Source: Chaetoceros tenuissimus (lineage: Eukaryota; Bacillariophyta; Thalassiosirophyceae; Chaetocerotales; Chaetocerotaceae). Taken from it: a stretch of 64,000 bases of DNA. Below the pieces are notes generated by a model. The model saw nothing but the letters and a program-made list of their open reading frames with translations, had not been told where the DNA came from and made no database searches. Position 1 is the stretch's first letter. Each line of letters opens with the position of its first letter. The DNA lies in contig BLLK01000069.1 of the NCBI GenBank assembly GCA_021927905.1, positions 1,798,001-1,862,000 of the forward strand, given 5' to 3'. Both the position numbers and the translations under genes were made by a program. Shown here in pieces: positions 2,564 to 62,033 of this stretch.

Positions 2564-3436
2564 ATGTCCATGGCTACATCATCATCAAAAAATGCTTCGT
2601 ATCTGCCATCGCAGAATCCTCAAAGGATGCAAGCACTCAAAACATTTCTCGCAGCAGATGAAATTGTAACTATCAATCCCACATTCTCCTACAAGGCACC
2701 GCTTGATTTCCTCATTACACAAGAATCTATCGGACCATTCGAGGCAGGCATTGACACAAATGTTCCATTATGGTTGGCACTCTATCTTCGGAAAAGAAAT
2801 TTGTGTAGATTGAGATGTCCGGAATGGATGGATGTCGAAAATCTCAAGCAAGTATTGAAACACGAACGTGATCCTCAAGAGGATTCTTTTTCAAAAGATT
2901 TACCATTTCGATATGCTGAAATTTCAAGAGCTATTTTACAAGCTTGTGGTGCAGGACGATCTGCTGTACATGCTGGAGGAAGTGGTGTTGATGGAGGAGA
3001 GGAAATTCCACAAATGGAAGTTGTGAGAGTTTTATTAGAAGATATCAGTATGTTGAGAATGGGCAAGATTAGAGATAATATTCATTTCTTATCGGGCGTC
3101 ATGGGAAGAAGTTTGGAAAAACCTATGCCAGGAATTAGTGTAGATGGTATGGGATCTATTGAATTGGCGGGTGTCAAACCATTTATGGAAGGAGCCTTTG
3201 CAGATCATTTCAAAATTATAAAGTCAGGAGTTTCAAAGGGTGAAAGTGGGAAAACACCAAGTAAGAGAATTGCAAGTCGTATCAGAGGTTCTAGAAGAAA
3301 GCAAGTCCAGGAAGTTGACGAAGATGGACTCATGGAACCTACAGCTGACGATGAAGATGAACTTATGGAACCAACAGCTGAAGAGCCGGAAGAAGAAGAG
3401 CAAGAAGGTGGCAGATCATTGAGAAGATATCGTTGA
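2564..3436 (+). CDS. GINS2: GINS complex subunit PSF2 (GINS2)
   Basis: This is the PSF2 subunit of the GINS tetramer, which joins CDC45 and MCM2-7 to form the replicative CMG helicase in the nucleus. The 290-residue product carries the PSF2 core: an N-terminal beta segment ending in VPLWLALYLRKRNLCRL, then PEWMDVENL and the helical A-domain with PFRYAEISRAIL. I start at the ATG at 2564 (context CAAAAATG) because homologues begin close to this point. Animal PSF2 is about 185 residues. Here an extra C-terminal tail of about 80 residues is first basic (KRIASRIRGSRRK) and then acidic, with a duplicated LMEPTA unit. The gene has no intron. Family assignment is firm; the role of the tail is unknown. 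Confidence 0.9.
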   Translation: MSMATSSSKNASYLPSQNPQRMQALKTFLAADEIVTINPTFSYKAPLDFLITQESIGPFEAGIDTNVPLWLALYLRKRNLCRLRCPEWMDVENLKQVLKHERDPQEDSFSKDLPFRYAEISRAILQACGAGRSAVHAGGSGVDGGEEIPQMEVVRVLLEDISMLRMGKIRDNIHFLSGVMGRSLEKPMPGISVDGMGSIELAGVKPFMEGAFADHFKIIKSGVSKGESGKTPSKRIASRIRGSRRKQVQEVDEDGLMEPTADDEDELMEPTAEEPEEEEQEGGRSLRRYR

Positions 3437-3792
3437 TTTTTGATATAATTAACTGTATTGTAACATACGCATGAATCATATAAATCATATTTCGCATTTT
3501 TGCCATTAATTTCTTTCTAAAATAGAAGCGCATTTACAATATTCTTCTGTAGGAAGAGGCAAATCTGCAAATCTATTACAATTTTTTAATACAAGACTAA
3601 CTCGTGACTTTTTTAGCTTCAGTCATGTCGTGTACATTTTTTTCAAATCCTGAATTGAAACTCCGACGTCACATTTTTAAAATTATTTCTACTCCAAAAC
3701 GAAAACACTGTCACGTTGAGTCACGTATGAAGCTTCATCATAAATGGTTATCCTCATAAATTTACACTAACTCACATTGTGATTTGTAAACC
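3437..3792. promoter_or_regulatory. Probable promoter of the PS-rich secreted protein gene
   Basis: The 3' flank of GINS2 and upstream region of the next gene. Three ACGT cores lie within 130 bp of the start codon: CGACGTCAC at 3664-3672 and two GTCACGT copies at 3710-3716 and 3720-3726. They resemble bZIP sites. This is pattern only, with no expression evidence. Confidence 0.3.
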
Positions 3793-5819
3793 ATGCAATT
3801 TTTCAAGAAAGGTCTAGTACCTCTGCTACTTATCTTTGCTGGATGCGAAGGTCAAGATGAAATTGGAGACCAGAGAACATGCAAAGGCGTAGATGGGCTA
3901 AAATCCAAGGTAAGTTGTAAACAGCTTATATTTAACTGACATAATGGCTTTATCTCACCTAAAACACCAACTTTCTGTCCAACAAGGTACGCATTTTTTG
4001 TACTGACGTACAAACTGGAGTAGATTGCCTCAGCACCGATGGCAAACCATTTATGACTCAGCTCAGTGATAGTTGCGGTACAAGGAAACTGAAGTTTCGT
4101 TACAAATTGAGTAACAAAAACGACGACGTTGAGGTTAGAGTAAACACAAATACTAAGATTCTCTACAACGGCAAAAGCATTTTCACCGACGATGATGATG
4201 ATAATGTAGTTGGAAAAGACATCCAGCCTAATCAGACACACTCCGGGGTTTACCTGGCAGACTTTGATACTTGTCAAGAACGCGCATCTTTTGCAGTGAT
4301 TTTGAAGCTCAAGACTACTTCAAACGGAAGTGGAACGAAAAGATACGTTGGATGTAAGTTTAGCATGTACCTTGCTATTTGGTGTTTGATCATTACTTCA
4401 GATTTAACGAATTACATTGATTGTCCCTCTTCATTAGGTCAAACTGAAATTATTCCATATGTGGAACTCTATCAGGCAGACTTATTTGATCCCATCACAC
4501 CATTTCCTACTCCTCAGAAGTCATTGGCTCCCTCTAGGGAAAATACCAAACCTCCTCTTTCTACTCCTCCAACACTAGCTCCATCCCTGAAACCATCTAT
4601 CAGAACAATCGTTGGAGAGGATCCAGATGACAGTGAAGTATCACCGTCCATGGCACCATCTACCTCACTGTCACCATCAAAGGGAAAGTCGGCAAAGTCG
4701 TCAACACCGTCGATGTCACGTTCTCCTTCGTCATTTCCAAGTAGATCAAGTGTACCTTCCACTTCTATCGCACCTTCAAAAGGTACAAAAAGTACATGCA
4801 AAAAGAAGAGTAGAGTCGCAGTGCCCCCACGATGCAGAGCGGACTATGATGCTGATCCAGAGCCTCTCCATTATAGACCGAAAATGACCAAGACTGATGT
4901 AACGAATTCTGTCTGTAGAGCTGCATACATCGAATCAAGTTACAGTCTTTTTGATTCTGAAGTCAATGATGACATCTACAGTGACACTTCGGAACTTGTA
5001 GCATCTGATCTTGGACTATTCAAAGGACTCAATGAAATCCAGAGATATGTGGGGTTCTTCAAAGATTCCACCCTCTTTGACATTTCGTTCACTTCCACCA
5101 GATCGGGCGAATTTGATAACATTCTCAACATTTATTCCGATGAAAATGAATGTGTTTTAACTCATGCGTTTGTTGCAACGATGAGAACCAAAGCTGCTAC
5201 TGACCCACAAACAATGGATGTTGTCATTGGTGTACGTACAAAGTTCTCAATCATAGAGCCAGGTAAAATCTCTATCCGCCGTAACGACGTAGTAAGTGTT
5301 TTTGCATGGGATCGTCTATTACATTCATGTTCATGTCCGAATTTTATGTCTCATCCCATCCCATTTCACAATCCATAATGATAGTTTGTACCGAGAACAT
5401 TCTCAAAATTCTTCTGGGGTGAAGCTTTACACACACGCGAAATCGCTTTCAGGAACTGTAACATTATGACGGAGTCTTGTGCAGTGGAATTCCGTGATAA
5501 TTGTTACTCCATTATGAATGTCGATGATTGTGTGATTGATATGTTAGCCTTGCCGGGAGCTGATCGTCGAGGAAACGTAGATGGCAAGAGCTTCGGATGT
5601 CGCACTTTCTATTCCACATTTGTTGGAGAAGACTCGGAAGTTTGTCCAAGTATCAGTTACCAACCAAAGTTTACAAGTGATTGCAAGCTCAAGTGTCAGA
5701 ATTCATCCAAACTCAAGAACCGCGAAATGTTTCTCAAAGAAGAGTTGGACTTTTTTCAAGACTTTAGTGCATTTGTTGGACTTGGAGAAGACAAATGGAC
5801 ATCTCCAAGCATCATCTAA
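3793..5819 (+). CDS. Secreted protein with PS-rich repeat region, unknown function
   Basis: Predicted as join(3793..3909, 3987..4353, 4438..5291, 5385..5819), 590 residues. All introns begin GTAAGT and phase is kept at every join; the last join uses ATGATAG as acceptor. The start MQFFKKGLVPLLLIFAGCEG gives a hydrophobic signal peptide. The N-terminal domain (about residues 35-180) and the C-terminal domain carry scattered cysteines. Between them, encoded at about 4500-4790, is a proline/serine-rich stretch of repeated PS units, a low-complexity linker common in secreted diatom proteins. I do not recognise a catalytic family. The second intron (84 nt) is a multiple of three with no stop, so a retained form would also be open. 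Location outside the plasma membrane or in the cell wall is inferred from signal peptide and composition only. Confidence 0.7.
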
Positions 5820-55290: not shown

Positions 55291-57542
55291 ATGAATCCTC
55301 GAGCACATCCCCCTGAGATGAAGGAACTGACACTCAATCATTCAGTGAGAAGGATGCCTAGAATTAATAGCCTAGCTTGTCAACTTGCAGAACTGAACAC
55401 TGACAGCGTCCTTACGTCAGCGTCTACAACTACAAGAAGAATTACGAGACAAAGCAATCACTTCCCAATTGGTCTGTCTACATTTGTAAAAATTATTCCT
55501 GGAAACAACTACTGTTTAGATTGTAGGTTTCGTCAAGAAGAAAATCCAAGTGATGAATTGTTATGGGCCAAGTAAGTGTCGACTCTGACAGATGACATAA
55601 TCTATCTTTCTTTGCTAATTCTTCATTTCCTATTTCAAATCCTTAGCATCACCTTTGGTACTCTTATTTGTGCCATGTGTGCACATGAGCATATAAATAC
55701 ATCGGGGGTATGTATAACAGGTCTTTTTATATATAAAAAATTCCCATGTTAGATTCTCATATCCTTTTTTTTTTTCCTACATAGAACACATCTGATATAT
55801 TATCACTAGAAAATAGCTCTTGGGACAAACAGCAAATATTATCATTATTGGAAGGTGGAAATGAGAAGGTGACGAACGCACTATCAAAAGATTTCAAAAG
55901 GGCAAGAAAAGTACCATCAATCAAGGATAGGTACAACACAAAAACTGCCAAACAATACAGTCAGAATCATTTAACTAGGGTACAGAATTTGTACAAAAGT
56001 TTCGAAGAAAAATTGAAAGAACAAGCTCTAAAATCAGCTTCTGAAAATAAGACTGATGACAAATCAAGTAGAATACAAGATCCGATAGGTAAAACACATG
56101 GAGTTGATGAATTCCAACCTCGAGCAGCAAAAGCTGGAACCATGTCGTTGGGTATTCCATTCGCTGGCAGGGTTTTGGATTCCATCACTTCAGGAATCAA
56201 ACAAACGATTGGGATAGGAGGGCAACAATCGATGAGTCCAAAGAAGCAATTGCAGCAGAAATCGTCAATGAAACCTATACCAAAACATGAAGTAAAAAAT
56301 ACTGTTTCGAGCACAATACAACGAACTCAACCGAAACCGGTAGTAGAGGCTCGAGTAGACATGAATGATGTAGAAAAATCTGCAAATCTATTCATGTCCA
56401 GAATGAATGAACTAGGCCTGAATGCAGATGCAGGCAGTGGTACAGGTTCAGGTAGCGATGGCGCTTATTCCCAAAGAGGAAAAAAGATTAATGACAAGCA
56501 AAGAAGACGAAGAAGAGCAGCGGTACAAACATCTCGACAGTCTATTTCACTTCAACCAAAAATAAATGAGTTGCATATCGAACCGCTTGGTGTGCAAAGA
56601 AGGAATGTCCAAATAAGAGAAGATCAAAATGTTGATGTACACATGCATAATAATAGTAATCGCAGTCTGCAGCGAGAGGATTCCGACCGTGATAAATTTT
56701 TAGAAAGAATGCGACGAAGCAGCTCTAATCGACCAGACGCTCGTCAGAGGGGTGCGACCATGATACCTCAATCCAATCCTAGAGCAGAATTTGCGTCTTC
56801 ATCACTAAGTCCACCCTCATCGAGTAGATACCTTCAGAGCACAAGTAATGTCCAGAGTGGTGTAACAAAAAGAAAGTCAATGAATAAAAGAAGCTCCATG
56901 GATACTTCATTGGCCATAGTAGTGGATGAGCCTAAATTGGGAGCTGACTCACAGGTACCAAATGCTGTAATTCCCGAACTTATGGATAGAAATAATCCAA
57001 TTTGGAAAAGAGTTGTACATCAAAATGTTGATAGTCGTGAATATCGTGGGAATGTAGAAAGTTTTAGGAACAACAATATTCCTAACCCTCATCACAATCA
57101 TGATAATAATAGAAATAGACCTCATCAAACCGCAACTCGGCAATACCCTCAAAATATGGAACCAATTAGAAGACAGGGTATATCGCTTGAACCTGGTCGA
57201 AATGAAACTTTGATAAGGTCTAGAAACCAAAACATTTCTCAGTCTAATAGACATCCACAGGAGGTGGTACCTCGTGGAGAAGTGTCAAGACCTCGGTCGT
57301 CGGTCGAACTTGCCCAAGATCCAAGATCGTCAAACAATAGATTCCAGTTAAATGTTGGTACTAGGGTAGCACCTCATCAAGATCCCATGAATAAGTTCAC
57401 AACTTCTACCCGAAATATAAATGTCTTCAGTTCAAATAGACCTGAGCCAGCGTATGAACAGCGAAATTTTGAGAAGACCTCGCTATTTAACACTACTTTG
57501 CGAAGAAATGTCAACAGTCAATTACATGTTCAACGTAACTGA
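55291..57542 (+). CDS. ArfGAP-like zinc finger protein, catalytic Arg absent
   Basis: Predicted as join(55291..55571, 55647..55707, 55785..57542), 699 residues; introns start GTAAGT and GTATGT, and frames fit. The domain is divided over all three exons: NNYCLDC (Cys75, Cys78), WANITFGTLICAMC (Cys102, Cys105) and then LEGGNEKVTNAL, matching the WAS-N-G-x-C-x2-C and GN-x3-N landmarks of ArfGAPs. The spacing between Cys pairs is 23 rather than 16. The catalytic Arg finger, in CxxCxGxHR, is replaced (CAMCAHEHI), so GAP activity is doubtful, and the protein may only bind an Arf GTPase. The remaining about 550 residues are Arg/Asn/Ser/Gln-rich and disordered with basic patches. It is an unusual, perhaps scaffold-like member. 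Confidence 0.75.
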
Positions 57543-57596
57543 AACCAGGCTAATATGGTTATTGTTTATTACTATAAAATAGAAGGGGAAGTCTTT

Positions 57597-59492
57597 TTAA
57601 TTCATCTCTTGAATGTCTGAAAGTGCCCTTCGTAGCATCAATGATTCTTCCAAACATTTGTCGTTTCTATTCTTAGATCTGCAATAATCCGCAATCTCGT
57701 CAAGTAGATCGTAAATGTTCTGTGTCAGTGATTTGGTGAGATACTCCTGAAAGAACGCCACCTTCTTGAGTAGCGAAAGGAGAAGTCGCTTGGCATAGTA
57801 CCAAGTATCAGCACCAAGTTTTGTCTGAAATGGATGTAGGCTTTTGCATAAACGTTCAATACCAAACTCGTAGTTCCCCTTTTCACAATACAAAGACGCC
57901 AAAACCAGGTTGATAATACAAGAGTGATGGGTGTCATCCTTTTTGTCCTTTACTTTTGACGAAGATTCCTCGTCATCAATTCTCTTGATTATATTTTCTG
58001 CATCTTCATTCTGATCACTGAGAATGTACGCCACTGTAAGATTTGCGAGGACGATTGGTGAGATGTCCAATAACGTCCCATCTGGACTCTCGCTTTCAAT
58101 ATAGGTTTTATAGTACTCTATGGACTTTTGAAGTTTCTTTGATTCTTGAGCAAAGCAACAATGTCCAAGGTTCAAATTGAACATATTTAAAGTTGCGCAA
58201 ATATCAGAATAGCGAAGCAGTAGCGACTCGGCCTTTGAGAATTCCTCTCGATCCCACAGAATCTTTGTCATGGCCATGAGCACAGGAATAAATGTGTCAA
58301 GTTCTCGTTCTAATTCAATCTCGTAGAATTCCAAATCTTGTGTTTCCCCCATTTCTGCTATCTCTTCTATAGCATTCACCAAGGACCTCATGTTTGGGGA
58401 TAGACGTTTCAGCAATGCTTGGAATTTGCTGAAAGCACCTTCTGGACTTGATTTGGACATGATGAAGGTATCCAAAAAGTCGTGGATACTCTTGTCAAGT
58501 AATTCTTGAACTAATTCACCATTGTCTGCAATAACATCCATGTATGCATCAAAACACTCATGCTGACAATATAAAATGAGCAAGTTTTGAAATGTTCCTG
58601 GAGGAAATGGAGGATGTGACAGGAGAAACCCTAATTTCTTCAAGGTCACCTCAGGATCGCCGTTTTGATTCAAGATGGCAGAATTGTGGAGGGACACAGC
58701 ATCCAACTCTTCATCTCTACGGTGGGGCATCAAAGCGAAAGCCTGCCTGGCCTCTGTTTCATTTTTCAAACGATAATAAATGGCTGTCTTGAGATTGTAA
58801 GCTTCGATGAGGAAAGATTCTTGCAGTTCAATCGAATTCGAAACAAAAGAATCATCATGAGGGTTGTCAGTATGCTCAAATTGTGGATAATTTTGCACAC
58901 TGTCATGAATAATTTCGTCAACTAGTTCCTCTGCGTCGTCGTACCGACCAAGCATGTAATGAGATAGAGAAACATTGTACGCTGTATTGGTGTCTTGTCC
59001 AAGTATGCGTGATACTTTCAAATACTTGTCAAGTGCGCTTTTGTAATCACCCTCCTTGAACTCGATGGTTGCTTCGGCAGCGATGGACTGTGGATCAGAC
59101 TTGTCACATTCGTCCAAATATTCTCTGGCCCCTTCAAGATTATCATCTTCCAATTCACAAGCTATTTTGAGAAGTAGCAAACGTTGAGAGGGACTCTCTT
59201 CAATCAAGTGAGAAAGGCTTTCATTAGCGTCTACAACTGCCCCAATACGTAACATGCAGTGAATGCGATTGACATGATAGTCTTCCTCATTGGGGACAAG
59301 TTGGATAAGTCTGTTGTAGATTTCAATGACATCAGTGTACTCTTGGAGATTGTAGTAACAATAAGCAAGAAGAGAAAGAGCAGCTCGCGAACGAGGAAAC
59401 AATTCAACCTTTTCTTCTAGAATTTGAGCAGCAGCTGTATAGTCTCCATCTCTAATTAGACCGTAAATTAAAGTGGTGAGCGATTGAATCAT
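57597..59492 (-). CDS. IFT70: Intraflagellar transport protein IFT70 (TTC30)
   Basis: IFT70/TTC30 (DYF-1) is a TPR protein of the IFT-B core that carries cargo along axonemes. The 631-residue protein is almost wholly TPR repeats, as in the family (about 665). Family landmarks include IYGLIRDGDYTAAAQIL near the start, the LHNSAILNQNGDPE and HPPFPPGTFQNLLILYCQHE regions, PVLMAMTKILWDREEF, SPIVLANLTVAYILSDQNE and the C-terminal YCEKGNYEFGIERLCKSL with LGADTWYYAKRLLLSL. Intronless. It is head to head with DNAAF5, 150 bp apart. Presence implies that this species builds flagella at some stage, most likely in male gametes. Confidence 0.95.
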   Translation of the reverse strand: MIQSLTTLIYGLIRDGDYTAAAQILEEKVELFPRSRAALSLLAYCYYNLQEYTDVIEIYNRLIQLVPNEEDYHVNRIHCMLRIGAVVDANESLSHLIEESPSQRLLLLKIACELEDDNLEGAREYLDECDKSDPQSIAAEATIEFKEGDYKSALDKYLKVSRILGQDTNTAYNVSLSHYMLGRYDDAEELVDEIIHDSVQNYPQFEHTDNPHDDSFVSNSIELQESFLIEAYNLKTAIYYRLKNETEARQAFALMPHRRDEELDAVSLHNSAILNQNGDPEVTLKKLGFLLSHPPFPPGTFQNLLILYCQHECFDAYMDVIADNGELVQELLDKSIHDFLDTFIMSKSSPEGAFSKFQALLKRLSPNMRSLVNAIEEIAEMGETQDLEFYEIELERELDTFIPVLMAMTKILWDREEFSKAESLLLRYSDICATLNMFNLNLGHCCFAQESKKLQKSIEYYKTYIESESPDGTLLDISPIVLANLTVAYILSDQNEDAENIIKRIDDEESSSKVKDKKDDTHHSCIINLVLASLYCEKGNYEFGIERLCKSLHPFQTKLGADTWYYAKRLLLSLLKKVAFFQEYLTKSLTQNIYDLLDEIADYCRSKNRNDKCLEESLMLRRALSDIQEMN

Positions 59493-59642
59493 GCTTTTTG
59501 TTGGGAAGTAGAAGAAGAAAAGTGCCTTTGGAGAAAGTGGCTGGAGGTTCGATTTACTTTGATTTTTAAATCAAATTTGATTTTTTGCTTAGTAGAAAGA
59601 TTCTTCCAAACACAAGTTCAAGTAGCCTCCATTTAATTTGAA
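59493..59642. promoter_or_regulatory. Shared 150 bp divergent promoter of IFT70 and DNAAF5
   Basis: The whole space between the two ciliary start codons is 150 bp, so both promoters must overlap. AAATCAAATTTGATTT at 59568-59583 is a perfect 16 bp palindrome in the middle, flanked by T-runs. No RFX X-box was recognised. A sperm-stage regulator might bind here; that is inference. Confidence 0.6.
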
Positions 59643-62033
59643 ATGAACGATGAAATCGATGAAATCTGGGAGTCTCTCAAGAAAGAGACTCATCGATCTA
59701 AGACTAAAGATATCTCGCATCTATGGCAAAGTCAAGGTGATTCTAAACAGAGACAAAAAGAAGAGATGGAAATAATGACTAATTCTAAATCTATTTCAGA
59801 CAAGACTCTTGTTCCAGCTGGGGAAAATAAGTCGTTCAACCTCTCCAACCTCACCAAAGTGCTTGCATGTGATGGAGATTCTGACGATGAATCTGAAGAC
59901 GGATCAATTTCAACTCCCAAAGAGCCCGAAGACAACACGAGGCTATCACAGATTCGAGGAATGATTCGAAGTGATGATCGTCAACAAAGAGTACAATTTC
60001 TACAAATTCTCAAGGCAGATGTTGAAAATCTACACAAGAAAATGAACCTTCACGAATCTAGCATCCCAGAATTGAACCTTCCACGCCCATATGACGTAGG
60101 AAGCATAAGTCTGACCTACAAGCAGAATGGAGGTATTGTATCAGATCTAGCGAGTGAAGAGTTTTCAGAATGGAACAAAACTTTCAATCCTTTGGGAAAG
60201 CAGTTTCGAGAAGCTGACAAGGAACCTCAAAAAGATGATGAACGTACACCATCATTCAATCCATCCTATCGAGAGAAATTGCAAAACATTTTGGATACCG
60301 TCGGAAAATCTCTTTTCAAATTGATTTCTGATTCATCTGAAAAATGTCGTTTGCTCTCCATTGAAATTATTCAACTTTTGCTCTTGTCAAAGTTGAACAT
60401 AGGAAAACACGTTGCCTATCTCATGCCAGCAATCTTTTCTAGAATGCCAACTACGCAACATGACCCAGAATTGAATATTTTTGTTCAGGACACACAATCT
60501 CTTGATTTTTACAAACGTGGCGGAGCAAAACTTTTGGAGCAACAGAAAAGAGTACTCACTAGGTCTGAGGGAAGCTCTTGCAGCTCTCTCGAATCATGTG
60601 AAGAAACAAGATTTGGATTGATCAACCTCCTGGAAACTGTGATTCGGTCATGTTTAAATTTAGGAGTACTCTCCTTTCTCGATGCTTATTTTACTGATAT
60701 TATATTTGCCTTGGAGTCCAGTCTTGCTGATCCTTTTCACAAAGTAAAAATCAAAAGTGCAGACATCTTGAAAAATATTGTGCGTATTCCAAACTGGGAA
60801 GTAGCTGCGAAATATTATGCCACAGCTCTCGCAAGGGCCTCCTTGGTACTGATGAGGCATAGAAAGCACAATGTACGCATCGCTGGGATCACTATGTTTG
60901 AGGCTTGTGTATGCGTTCCCGACCGTGAGAAGATTAAAGGTGCAGGATCTGATGCCATTCTCGATCTTATTGGATTTAAAGAGGAGAATGTTCTACCTAT
61001 ATCTGCTTTCTATTCTGCGGAGAATGGGGTCAATGTCAATATCTTGGCAGAGTTGACTACAGATCGACATGCCACGGTGAGACTTGAGTGTTGTAAAGTG
61101 CTTTGCTTCCTCATTTGTTGTCTACCAAATCGCTATGACTTTACTCAAAGATTTTTACCGTATCTGCTCAATTTTTACAATGATGACTTTGATATCGTTC
61201 GAGATCAAGCCATGTTTGCAATTGAAAATTGTGGAAGACAGTACGAAGTTGAGCACCCTGATGAAGTGATTGAAAGAAAACAGTATGGAATAGATGGAGA
61301 TAGCAGGTGTAACTACGAAGGTCAGCTTCCGGAGCCAATTATACAACGGCCAAGCATTGGATCTAGGCTCTTTGTACGTTCGAATTCAAAAAGATTCTGT
61401 GTTGCTCTACTTCAAGAGTTGAACAATTGGATTCCAAAAGTTCGTCTACAAACCGCAAAACTTCTGAAAATTCTCACTGTATATTGTGAAGAAAATCTTA
61501 CCATGGACTTTCATGAAACTCTATCCAAAATTGTAAAGGCACTGAAAAAGGTAATGTCAAGTGAAGATAAAGAGGACAAGCAGTTACAAATAGAGCTAGA
61601 AACTCTACTTACATCAATAGGGCGATACGTCGACCCAGAGGTTTACACTCCACTTCTCCTGCCTTCAATGTTTGGAACACTTACCTCAAAAGAAAGTTGC
61701 GTTGTAAACTTGAAAGCTTTTCAGTCTTTGATCAAAGGCAGCAAACCAAACAGAGTCAAGTCACAAATAAATCTAGTTTTATCTACAATCACAGGCTCAT
61801 TTCTTCAGGAGGATTTGATTTGTAGCACGGAGAGTTCAAGACTGCAGTTGCAAGTGATCGAAGATATCTTTCTTCGTGTGGAAAATGAGATTATGGACAC
61901 AGACATTATTGAAAATATTGACAATTTGGAGGAGATGCTGAGAAAATCTGTTGACAGAGGGAACTGTTCAAAACTAGCTCTCTCTCTACTTGATACAATG
62001 ACACGAACGAAATCACAGAGTGAAAGTATTTAA
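59643..62033 (+). CDS. DNAAF5: Dynein axonemal assembly factor 5 (HEATR2)
   Basis: DNAAF5/HEATR2 is a cytoplasmic HEAT-repeat protein needed to preassemble axonemal dynein arms before they enter the flagellum. The 796-residue product has a charged N-terminus and then repeated paired helices: FKLISDSSEKCRLLSIEIIQ, LDAYFTDIIFALESSLADPF followed by VKIKSADILKNIV, HKVK-type turns, and WIPKVRLQTAKLLKILTVY. Conserved motifs such as DRHATVRLECCKVL and FDIVRDQAMFAIEN match HEATR2. Length is close to animal DNAAF5 (about 855). Intronless and head to head with IFT70, so the window holds a transport factor and a dynein assembly factor on one promoter region. Dynein arms are thus probably present in the gamete flagellum. 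Confidence 0.85.
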   Translation: MNDEIDEIWESLKKETHRSKTKDISHLWQSQGDSKQRQKEEMEIMTNSKSISDKTLVPAGENKSFNLSNLTKVLACDGDSDDESEDGSISTPKEPEDNTRLSQIRGMIRSDDRQQRVQFLQILKADVENLHKKMNLHESSIPELNLPRPYDVGSISLTYKQNGGIVSDLASEEFSEWNKTFNPLGKQFREADKEPQKDDERTPSFNPSYREKLQNILDTVGKSLFKLISDSSEKCRLLSIEIIQLLLLSKLNIGKHVAYLMPAIFSRMPTTQHDPELNIFVQDTQSLDFYKRGGAKLLEQQKRVLTRSEGSSCSSLESCEETRFGLINLLETVIRSCLNLGVLSFLDAYFTDIIFALESSLADPFHKVKIKSADILKNIVRIPNWEVAAKYYATALARASLVLMRHRKHNVRIAGITMFEACVCVPDREKIKGAGSDAILDLIGFKEENVLPISAFYSAENGVNVNILAELTTDRHATVRLECCKVLCFLICCLPNRYDFTQRFLPYLLNFYNDDFDIVRDQAMFAIENCGRQYEVEHPDEVIERKQYGIDGDSRCNYEGQLPEPIIQRPSIGSRLFVRSNSKRFCVALLQELNNWIPKVRLQTAKLLKILTVYCEENLTMDFHETLSKIVKALKKVMSSEDKEDKQLQIELETLLTSIGRYVDPEVYTPLLLPSMFGTLTSKESCVVNLKAFQSLIKGSKPNRVKSQINLVLSTITGSFLQEDLICSTESSRLQLQVIEDIFLRVENEIMDTDIIENIDNLEEMLRKSVDRGNCSKLALSLLDTMTRTKSQSESI

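What the first reader, a model, noticed from the sequence alone, without database searches (positions are those of the whole stretch)
57597..62033. Head-to-head ciliary gene pair IFT70-DNAAF5 on a 150 bp promoter
An IFT-B protein gene and an axonemal dynein assembly factor gene share one short divergent promoter region. In a diatom, flagella exist only in sperm of centric species, so both should be silent most of the time and switched on together. The arrangement offers a compact handle on the regulator of diatom spermatogenesis and a marker for whether dynein-arm assembly is kept.
Basis: partly seen in the sequence, partly recalled or inferred. Interest (0 to 1): 0.75.

Follow-up and report, generated by a model that had tools for sequence, protein, structure and literature searches.

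The report
Tightly paired sperm-flagellum genes in diatom
Two genes needed to build a moving flagellum sit back to back only 150 bases apart in what appears to be a centric diatom genome, unusually close for that genome, so they probably share one on-switch used when the alga makes sperm, but nothing here proves that they are switched on together.

Summary
Window 57597-59492 (-) is a complete, intronless IFT70 gene; 59643-62033 (+) is a complete, intronless DNAAF5/HEATR2 gene; each was found at one locus only. Their start codons are exactly 150 bp apart. The genome fits the published Chaetoceros tenuissimus NIES-3715 assembly, a centric diatom. In 264 kb the gap is the shortest of 38 divergent ORF pairs (median 694 bp), so two separate ordinary promoters hardly fit. 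Two flagellar genes being neighbours is less striking: a divergent ciliary pair somewhere in the genome is expected by chance with P about 0.05-0.25 for an assumed 60-150 ciliary genes. The genome keeps three outer-arm dynein heavy chains plus cytoplasmic dynein-1; no inner-arm or dynein-2 chain was found. DNAAF5 therefore probably serves outer arms only, as published for Thalassiosira pseudonana. Common regulation is not shown: no motif passes correction across seven ciliary upstream regions, and an 18-bp palindrome at the centre of the gap, exact at one place in the genome, rests on post hoc inspection. Conservation could not be tested on DNA; contig-length comparison gave no sign of it elsewhere. 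Likely a real, compact bidirectional promoter, a new instance of a familiar arrangement.

The parts
57597..59492 (-). IFT70 (TTC30/DYF-1) gene, intronless CDS, 631 aa, intraflagellar transport complex B subunit
   Evidence: PDB IFT70 8bd7_C E 6.9e-127; Pfam TPR families; one match in the genome
59643..62033 (+). DNAAF5 (HEATR2) gene, intronless CDS, 796 aa, dynein axonemal assembly factor
   Evidence: Pfam TPR_DNAAF5 102.4 bits, HEAT_DAAF5 76.8 bits; 16-sequence alignment with conserved start; other loci are other HEAT proteins
59493..59642 (.). 150-bp intergenic region: presumed bidirectional promoter with both 5' UTRs
   Evidence: coordinates; shortest of 38 divergent gaps in 264 kb; promoter function inferred
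59558..59575 (.). palindrome TTTGATTT-TT-AAATCAAA, centre 1 bp from the centre of the gap; candidate site for a dimeric regulator
   Evidence: I5; exact pattern found at one place in the genome; post hoc; with 2 mismatches 20 of 100 shuffles of the window also hold a match; 9 of 38 divergent gaps, this one included, hold an inverted repeat with arms of 8 or more
59576..59585 (+). third half-site, TTTGATTTTT, directly abutting the palindrome
   Evidence: D3, I6; this 10-mer is in 0 of 127 background upstream regions, post hoc

Best explanation
A compact head-to-head pair of two motile-flagellum genes in a centric diatom, IFT70 (cargo transport into the growing flagellum) and DNAAF5 (cytoplasmic assembly of axonemal dynein), driven from one shared 150-bp promoter. 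Shown: the two genes, their orientation and the unusually short gap. Inferred: both start sites lie in one open-chromatin stretch, so that activation in spermatogonia opens both genes at once; IFT70 then serves flagellum growth and DNAAF5 the loading of the three-headed outer-arm dynein that this genome still encodes, while both stay low in vegetative cells.
For: Gene identities. Gap of 150 bp, shortest of 38 divergent gaps, median 694. Both genes serve the same organelle (established knowledge). Four heavy-chain loci by two domain searches: outer-arm gamma/DNAH5-like, beta/DNAH9-17-like and alpha/Kelch-type, plus cytoplasmic dynein-1. So a client for DNAAF5 exists. IFT46 and two PIH1-domain proteins are also present. 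In L. danicus TTC30a rises at meiosis. In T. pseudonana a HEATR2 orthologue accompanies outer-arm-only sperm.
Against: No transcript data for either gene in this species; the main text of the C. tenuissimus transcriptome paper has no hit for dynein, IFT, cilia or sexual, and its one flagell- hit is in the reference list. No motif shared with other ciliary upstream regions survives correction. By chance alone at least one divergent ciliary pair is expected with P 0.049, 0.126 or 0.254 for assumed K = 60, 100 or 150 (0.011 for 30, 0.414 for 200). No sign of linkage elsewhere: by eye, none of the 22 other DNAAF5 rows shares its longest-contig length with any listed IFT70 row (120 listed of 239, the window's own included). 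None of the 22 L. danicus flagellar genes was differentially expressed in sexualised Skeletonema marinoi, and TTC30a is not marked for Chaetoceros curvisetus in the published transcriptome table. A HEATR2 orthologue in non-motile Chlorella (passage) shows that the gene need not imply a moving flagellum.
Confidence: 0.55

Rival explanations
1. Chance neighbours: genome compaction or a local deletion brought two unrelated promoters close together, and the genes merely happen both to be ciliary. Each has its own regulation, and any co-expression is incidental.
For: Gene-dense genome, 18,705 genes in 41 Mb. P of at least one divergent ciliary pair 0.05-0.25 for K 60-150, before allowing for a reader who picked the case. 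No conserved motif and no sign of conserved linkage.
Against: The gap is at the extreme low end for this genome (1 of 38 at most 150 bp), which leaves little room for two separate promoters.
Confidence: 0.33
2. Asymmetric pair: the region is a promoter for both genes, but only IFT70 is sperm-specific. DNAAF5 is expressed at a low constant level or has another role, and the shared region is a constraint rather than a switch.
For: A HEATR2 orthologue exists in a non-motile green alga. IFT70 induction is documented in another centric diatom, while I found none for DNAAF5.
Against: I recall no role of DNAAF5 outside axonemal dynein assembly (recalled, not searched). The genome keeps outer-arm heavy chains as clients.
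Confidence: 0.1

Closest known systems
Bidirectional (head-to-head) promoters, including divergent gene pairs of other eukaryotes
   Same: two genes on opposite strands, start to start, well under 1 kb apart
   Different: in several published cases shared activity was tested by reporters or transcript assays (starts of abstracts seen in the listing); here it is only inferred, and 150 bp lies at the short end for this genome
IFT70/TTC30 of IFT-B (solved chains 8bd7_C and 4uzy_A; that they are from Chlamydomonas is recalled)
   Same: residues 6-599 of 631 align with the solved protein; TPR repeats
   Different: intronless here; 7 of the 13 homologues aligned have at most 4 (6 of them) or 16 (1) residues before position 33, perhaps because of an early intron
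DNAAF5/HEATR2 (Drosophila CG31320, T. pseudonana orthologue)
   Same: both DNAAF5 Pfam domains in order
   Different: nothing in kind: it occurs in a genome where only outer-arm heavy chains were found, as published for T. pseudonana
Centric-diatom flagella gene sets (Nanjappa 2017; Parmales genome paper 2023; 2025 sex-marker paper)
   Same: IFT-B genes and axonemal heavy chains kept for sperm
   Different: these papers list genes and expression; gene order or promoter sharing is not treated in the sections and passages I read

Membership tests
IFT70/TTC30 | full-length TPR superhelix aligned with known IFT70 | tested here: met
   query 6-599 of 631 to IFT70 chain 17-609, E 6.9e-127
IFT70/TTC30 | assembly in the IFT-B1 core (with IFT52/IFT88) | not testable with these tools
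   IFT46 found; IFT52_GIFT search gave nothing but its control was silent too
DNAAF5/HEATR2 | TPR_DNAAF5 plus HEAT_DAAF5 domains above cut-off | tested here: met
   102.4 and 76.8 bits
DNAAF5/HEATR2 | occurs with axonemal dynein heavy chains | tested here: met
   three outer-arm heavy chains in the same genome
Bidirectional promoter pair | divergent orientation with start-to-start gap under 1 kb | tested here: met
   150 bp between start codons; transcription starts unknown
Bidirectional promoter pair | gap shorter than usual for the genome | tested here: met
   shortest of 38; 1 of 38 at most 150 bp; 2 of 39 at the 100-aa threshold
Bidirectional promoter pair | co-expression of the two genes | not testable with these tools
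   no expression data held for these genes
Bidirectional promoter pair | arrangement conserved in relatives | tested here: inconclusive
   no diatom DNA reached; contig-length comparison by eye found no shared contig
X-box/RFX-driven ciliary promoter | X-box in the promoter and an RFX factor in the genome | tested here: inconclusive
   X-box-like pattern (recalled consensus) in 0 of 7 ciliary regions but also in none of the 116 background regions; RFX family not found, with a silent control

The most novel reading that the evidence does not exclude
The central triple element (TTTGATTT / AAATCAAA / TTTGATTT, 59558-59583) is a symmetric binding site for a dimeric sperm-specific regulator of diatom flagellar genes that works without RFX. 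It would drive both genes equally from the middle of the gap and also act at other flagellar genes such as IFT46, whose upstream region carries the same 10-mer TTTGATTTTT. A simple two-way switch would then control the diatom sperm flagellum programme.
Probability: 0.08. Interest if true: 0.65.

Novelty: new member of a known kind. Interest (0 to 1): 0.36.

Why it matters
I came across no established regulator of sperm-flagellum genes in diatoms: the listings show none by title or abstract start, and a T. pseudonana paper leaves open whether myb24, myb16 and bzip2 act in gamete development (passage). A 150-bp region that must serve two flagellar genes is a small, clonable reporter target, and a two-colour reporter on it could mark spermatogenesis in a bloom-forming centric diatom. 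The heavy-chain inventory (three outer-arm chains and cytoplasmic dynein-1, nothing else found) also gives a clear prediction for sperm structure in this species: outer arms only.

Tried and rejected
Conservation of the pair: scans of viral contigs with the DNAAF5 and IFT70 alignments and of genome contigs with the DNAAF5 alignment found no relatives; by their descriptions these collections hold viral and prokaryotic records, so this is no evidence. Comparing longest-contig lengths by eye between the DNAAF5 lists (22 other rows; one further row) and the 120 listed of 239 IFT70 rows gave no shared contig apart from the window's own. This is weak: contigs are mostly short, some rows have none, and the list was cut.

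Motif search: 6-8-mers in 7 ciliary upstream regions against 116 background regions. Best raw p 7.1e-5 among 2,310 8-mers, not significant after correction. From the sequences printed there, at least the outer-arm beta and gamma regions contain exon and intron sequence, so the test is flawed as well as small. I rejected any claim of a shared element on that basis. TTTGATTTTT was chosen after seeing it and stays a lead: 0 of 127 background regions; 2 copies here; 1 upstream of IFT46; none in the checked upstream stretches of outer-arm beta or the two PIH1 genes. It also occurs once inside the outer-arm alpha ORF (L040:4402), once in L041 (position 806, kilobases from IFT140), and 4 times in all in 264 kb, 2 of them here. 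The shorter TTTGATTT is in 12 of 127 background regions. With 2 mismatches the palindrome is matched in 20 of 100 shuffles of the window. An inverted repeat with arms of 8 or more is in 9 of 38 divergent gaps, this one included. The hairpin is not exceptional (z -1.65, 11 of 200 shuffles as good). The sigma-70-type scan does not apply to a eukaryote.

Absence claims I did not make: IFT80/172 TPR, IFT52 and RFX searches gave nothing, but their controls were silent. GAS/DRC4 gave two matches below cut-off, and the control also rang in 4 genomes. A possible second DNAAF5 copy was checked and rejected. The 'no inner-arm, no dynein-2' statement rests on two family searches of one assembly.
Full report
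WHAT IS THERE. The minus-strand ORF 57597-59492 encodes 631 aa whose best solved relative is IFT70 (8bd7_C, E 6.9e-127, residues 6-599). The plus-strand ORF 59643-62033 encodes 796 aa with both DNAAF5 domains (TPR_DNAAF5 102.4 bits, HEAT_DAAF5 76.8 bits). Both reading frames are open from start to stop. The DNAAF5 start is supported by the conserved N-terminus in a 16-sequence alignment, in which the two nearest relatives are 86% and 85% identical (their sequences). The IFT70 start is supported by the alignment with the solved protein, which begins at residue 6. No in-frame ATG lies upstream of either start. The gap is 150 bp. IFT70 gives one match in the genome. The TPR_DNAAF5 model also passes its cut-off on contigs C42 and C34 with per-stretch scores close to those of the window gene, but these frames are GCN1/EF3-type and SF3b1-type HEAT proteins without HEAT_DAAF5. 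So DNAAF5 too was found at one locus.

WHERE IT IS. The genome has 41,027,912 bases in 68 contigs, and contig C34 is 4,456,483 long. This fits the published Chaetoceros tenuissimus NIES-3715 assembly: 41.0 Mb in 85 scaffolds, 38.9% G+C, largest scaffold 4.46 Mb, 18,705 genes (first part of the Results read). Window G+C runs from 36% to 42%. The one DNAAF5 homologue that carries an organism name is from Conticribra weissflogii, a centric diatom (recalled). I take the species as C. tenuissimus; this is an inference.

IS THE GAP UNUSUAL? I called ATG-to-stop ORFs in the window and in 200 kb of C34 (this pair counted). At 150 aa or more there are 38 divergent pairs, with 5th percentile 292, median 694 and only this pair at 150 or less. 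At 200 aa it is 1 of 35. At 100 aa 2 of 39 are at 150 or less, with median 435. With both ORFs at 300 aa or more this is the shortest of 20, and the next is 279. Missed introns lengthen background gaps and first-ATG calls shorten them, so the rank is approximate. Two ordinary promoters with their 5' UTRs would not usually fit in 150 bp in this genome (inference).

IS THE PAIRING UNUSUAL? With 18,705 genes placed at random and one adjacent pair in four divergent, at least one divergent adjacent pair of ciliary genes occurs with P 0.011, 0.049, 0.126, 0.254 or 0.414 for 30, 60, 100, 150 or 200 ciliary genes (K assumed). The pairing by itself is therefore not strong evidence of selection. Multiplying by the spacing rank gives 0.0013-0.0067 for K 60-150 with 1 of 38, or 0.0025-0.013 with 2 of 39, but both the case and the spacing were looked at because a reader had picked them.

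DOES THE GENOME STILL BUILD DYNEIN ARMS? Two domain searches found the same four heavy-chain loci (DHC_N2, 4 matches; AAA_6, 8 matches at 4 loci). By best solved relatives they are: an outer-arm gamma/DNAH5-like chain (first an outer-arm chain called alpha in its entry, which I recall as ciliate nomenclature, then a chain named gamma, then DNAH5); outer-arm beta/DNAH9-17; an alpha-type chain with Kelch, IPT and filamin domains; and cytoplasmic dynein-1. No inner-arm and no dynein-2 heavy chain was found. IFT46 and two PIH1-domain proteins are present. This matches the published picture of T. pseudonana sperm, 9+0 with outer arms only, with a HEATR2 orthologue (passage). Hence 'dynein-arm assembly is kept' holds for outer arms, and DNAAF5's presence in such a diatom is not new.

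WHAT IS KNOWN OF EXPRESSION. TTC30a (IFT70) is among six flagellar genes raised more than 2-fold at meiosis in L. danicus (section 6 read). In the table of the same paper TTC30a is marked for many centrics but not for Chaetoceros curvisetus (section 7 read). IFT88 is raised in sexualised T. pseudonana (passages). Outer-arm dynein genes are raised in sexualised Skeletonema marinoi, but none of the 22 L. danicus flagellar genes was differentially expressed there (passages), a result against simple transfer between species. The 2025 marker paper uses two axonemal heavy chains, DRC4 and SIG1 as flagella markers (passages). For DNAAF5 in any diatom I found presence only (search listing, passage). 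Pennate diatoms lack IFT-B genes in the Parmales paper (passage).

INSIDE THE GAP. It is 33% G+C, with a palindrome TTTGATTT-TT-AAATCAAA at 59558-59575 whose centre is 1 bp from the centre of the gap, followed at once by a third half-site. The exact pattern with two free middle bases is at one place in the genome (that search skips very common words), and three half-sites within 30 bp occur once in 264 kb. TTTGATTTTT is in 0 of 127 background upstream regions, twice here and once upstream of IFT46. Against this: it was found by inspection; with 2 mismatches 20 of 100 shuffles of the window hold the palindrome; 9 of 38 divergent gaps, this one included, hold an inverted repeat of such arm length; the checked upstream stretches of outer-arm beta and both PIH1 genes lack the 10-mer, which also turns up inside a coding frame and elsewhere; and an unbiased k-mer test gave nothing after correction.

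VERDICT. The pair and its gap are real, and the gap is unusually short. A shared bidirectional promoter is the most economical reading. Joint control in spermatogenesis is plausible from relatives but untested here, as is conservation. In the searches I ran I saw no paper describing this pair or a bidirectional flagellar promoter in diatoms (listings). It is an interesting, usable locus rather than a new kind of system.

Noticed in passing
L032:628-2928 and 3008-3985 (G000:C32, about 990947-994304, +): An IFT140 homologue, an IFT-A subunit (second beta-propeller, TPR and C-terminal TPR domain), in a genome where no dynein-2 heavy chain was found. The Parmales paper calls IFT-A completely absent from the diatoms it studied (passage), while Nanjappa 2017 marks IFT140 in five centrics, not in Chaetoceros curvisetus. 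The long ORF just upstream has no Pfam match at E 0.001, so the first propeller seems to be missing or elsewhere.
   Followed up: partly
G000:C27 ~41-44 kb, C44 ~314-320 kb, C32 ~2.784-2.789 Mb, C32 ~226-228 kb: Only four dynein heavy-chain loci found: three outer-arm types, including a Kelch/IPT/filamin alpha type, and cytoplasmic dynein-1. A reduced, outer-arm-only motor set.
   Followed up: partly
IFT70 homologues P0025, P0026, P0027, P0029, P0032, P0034, P0038: Of 13 aligned homologues 7 lack most of the first 32 residues (0-4 residues in six, 16 in one), perhaps because an early intron interrupts the gene there; the window's gene has none.
   Followed up: no
window 57543-57596: The gene before IFT70 (ORF 55785-57542, +) converges on it with only 54 bp between the two stop codons.
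   Followed up: no
window 1-64000: Pfam scans of 32 window ORFs out of the 42 frames show no further ciliary family; neighbours include P450s, an OGG1-like glycosylase, an aspartyl protease, a U32 peptidase and PSF2.
   Followed up: partly
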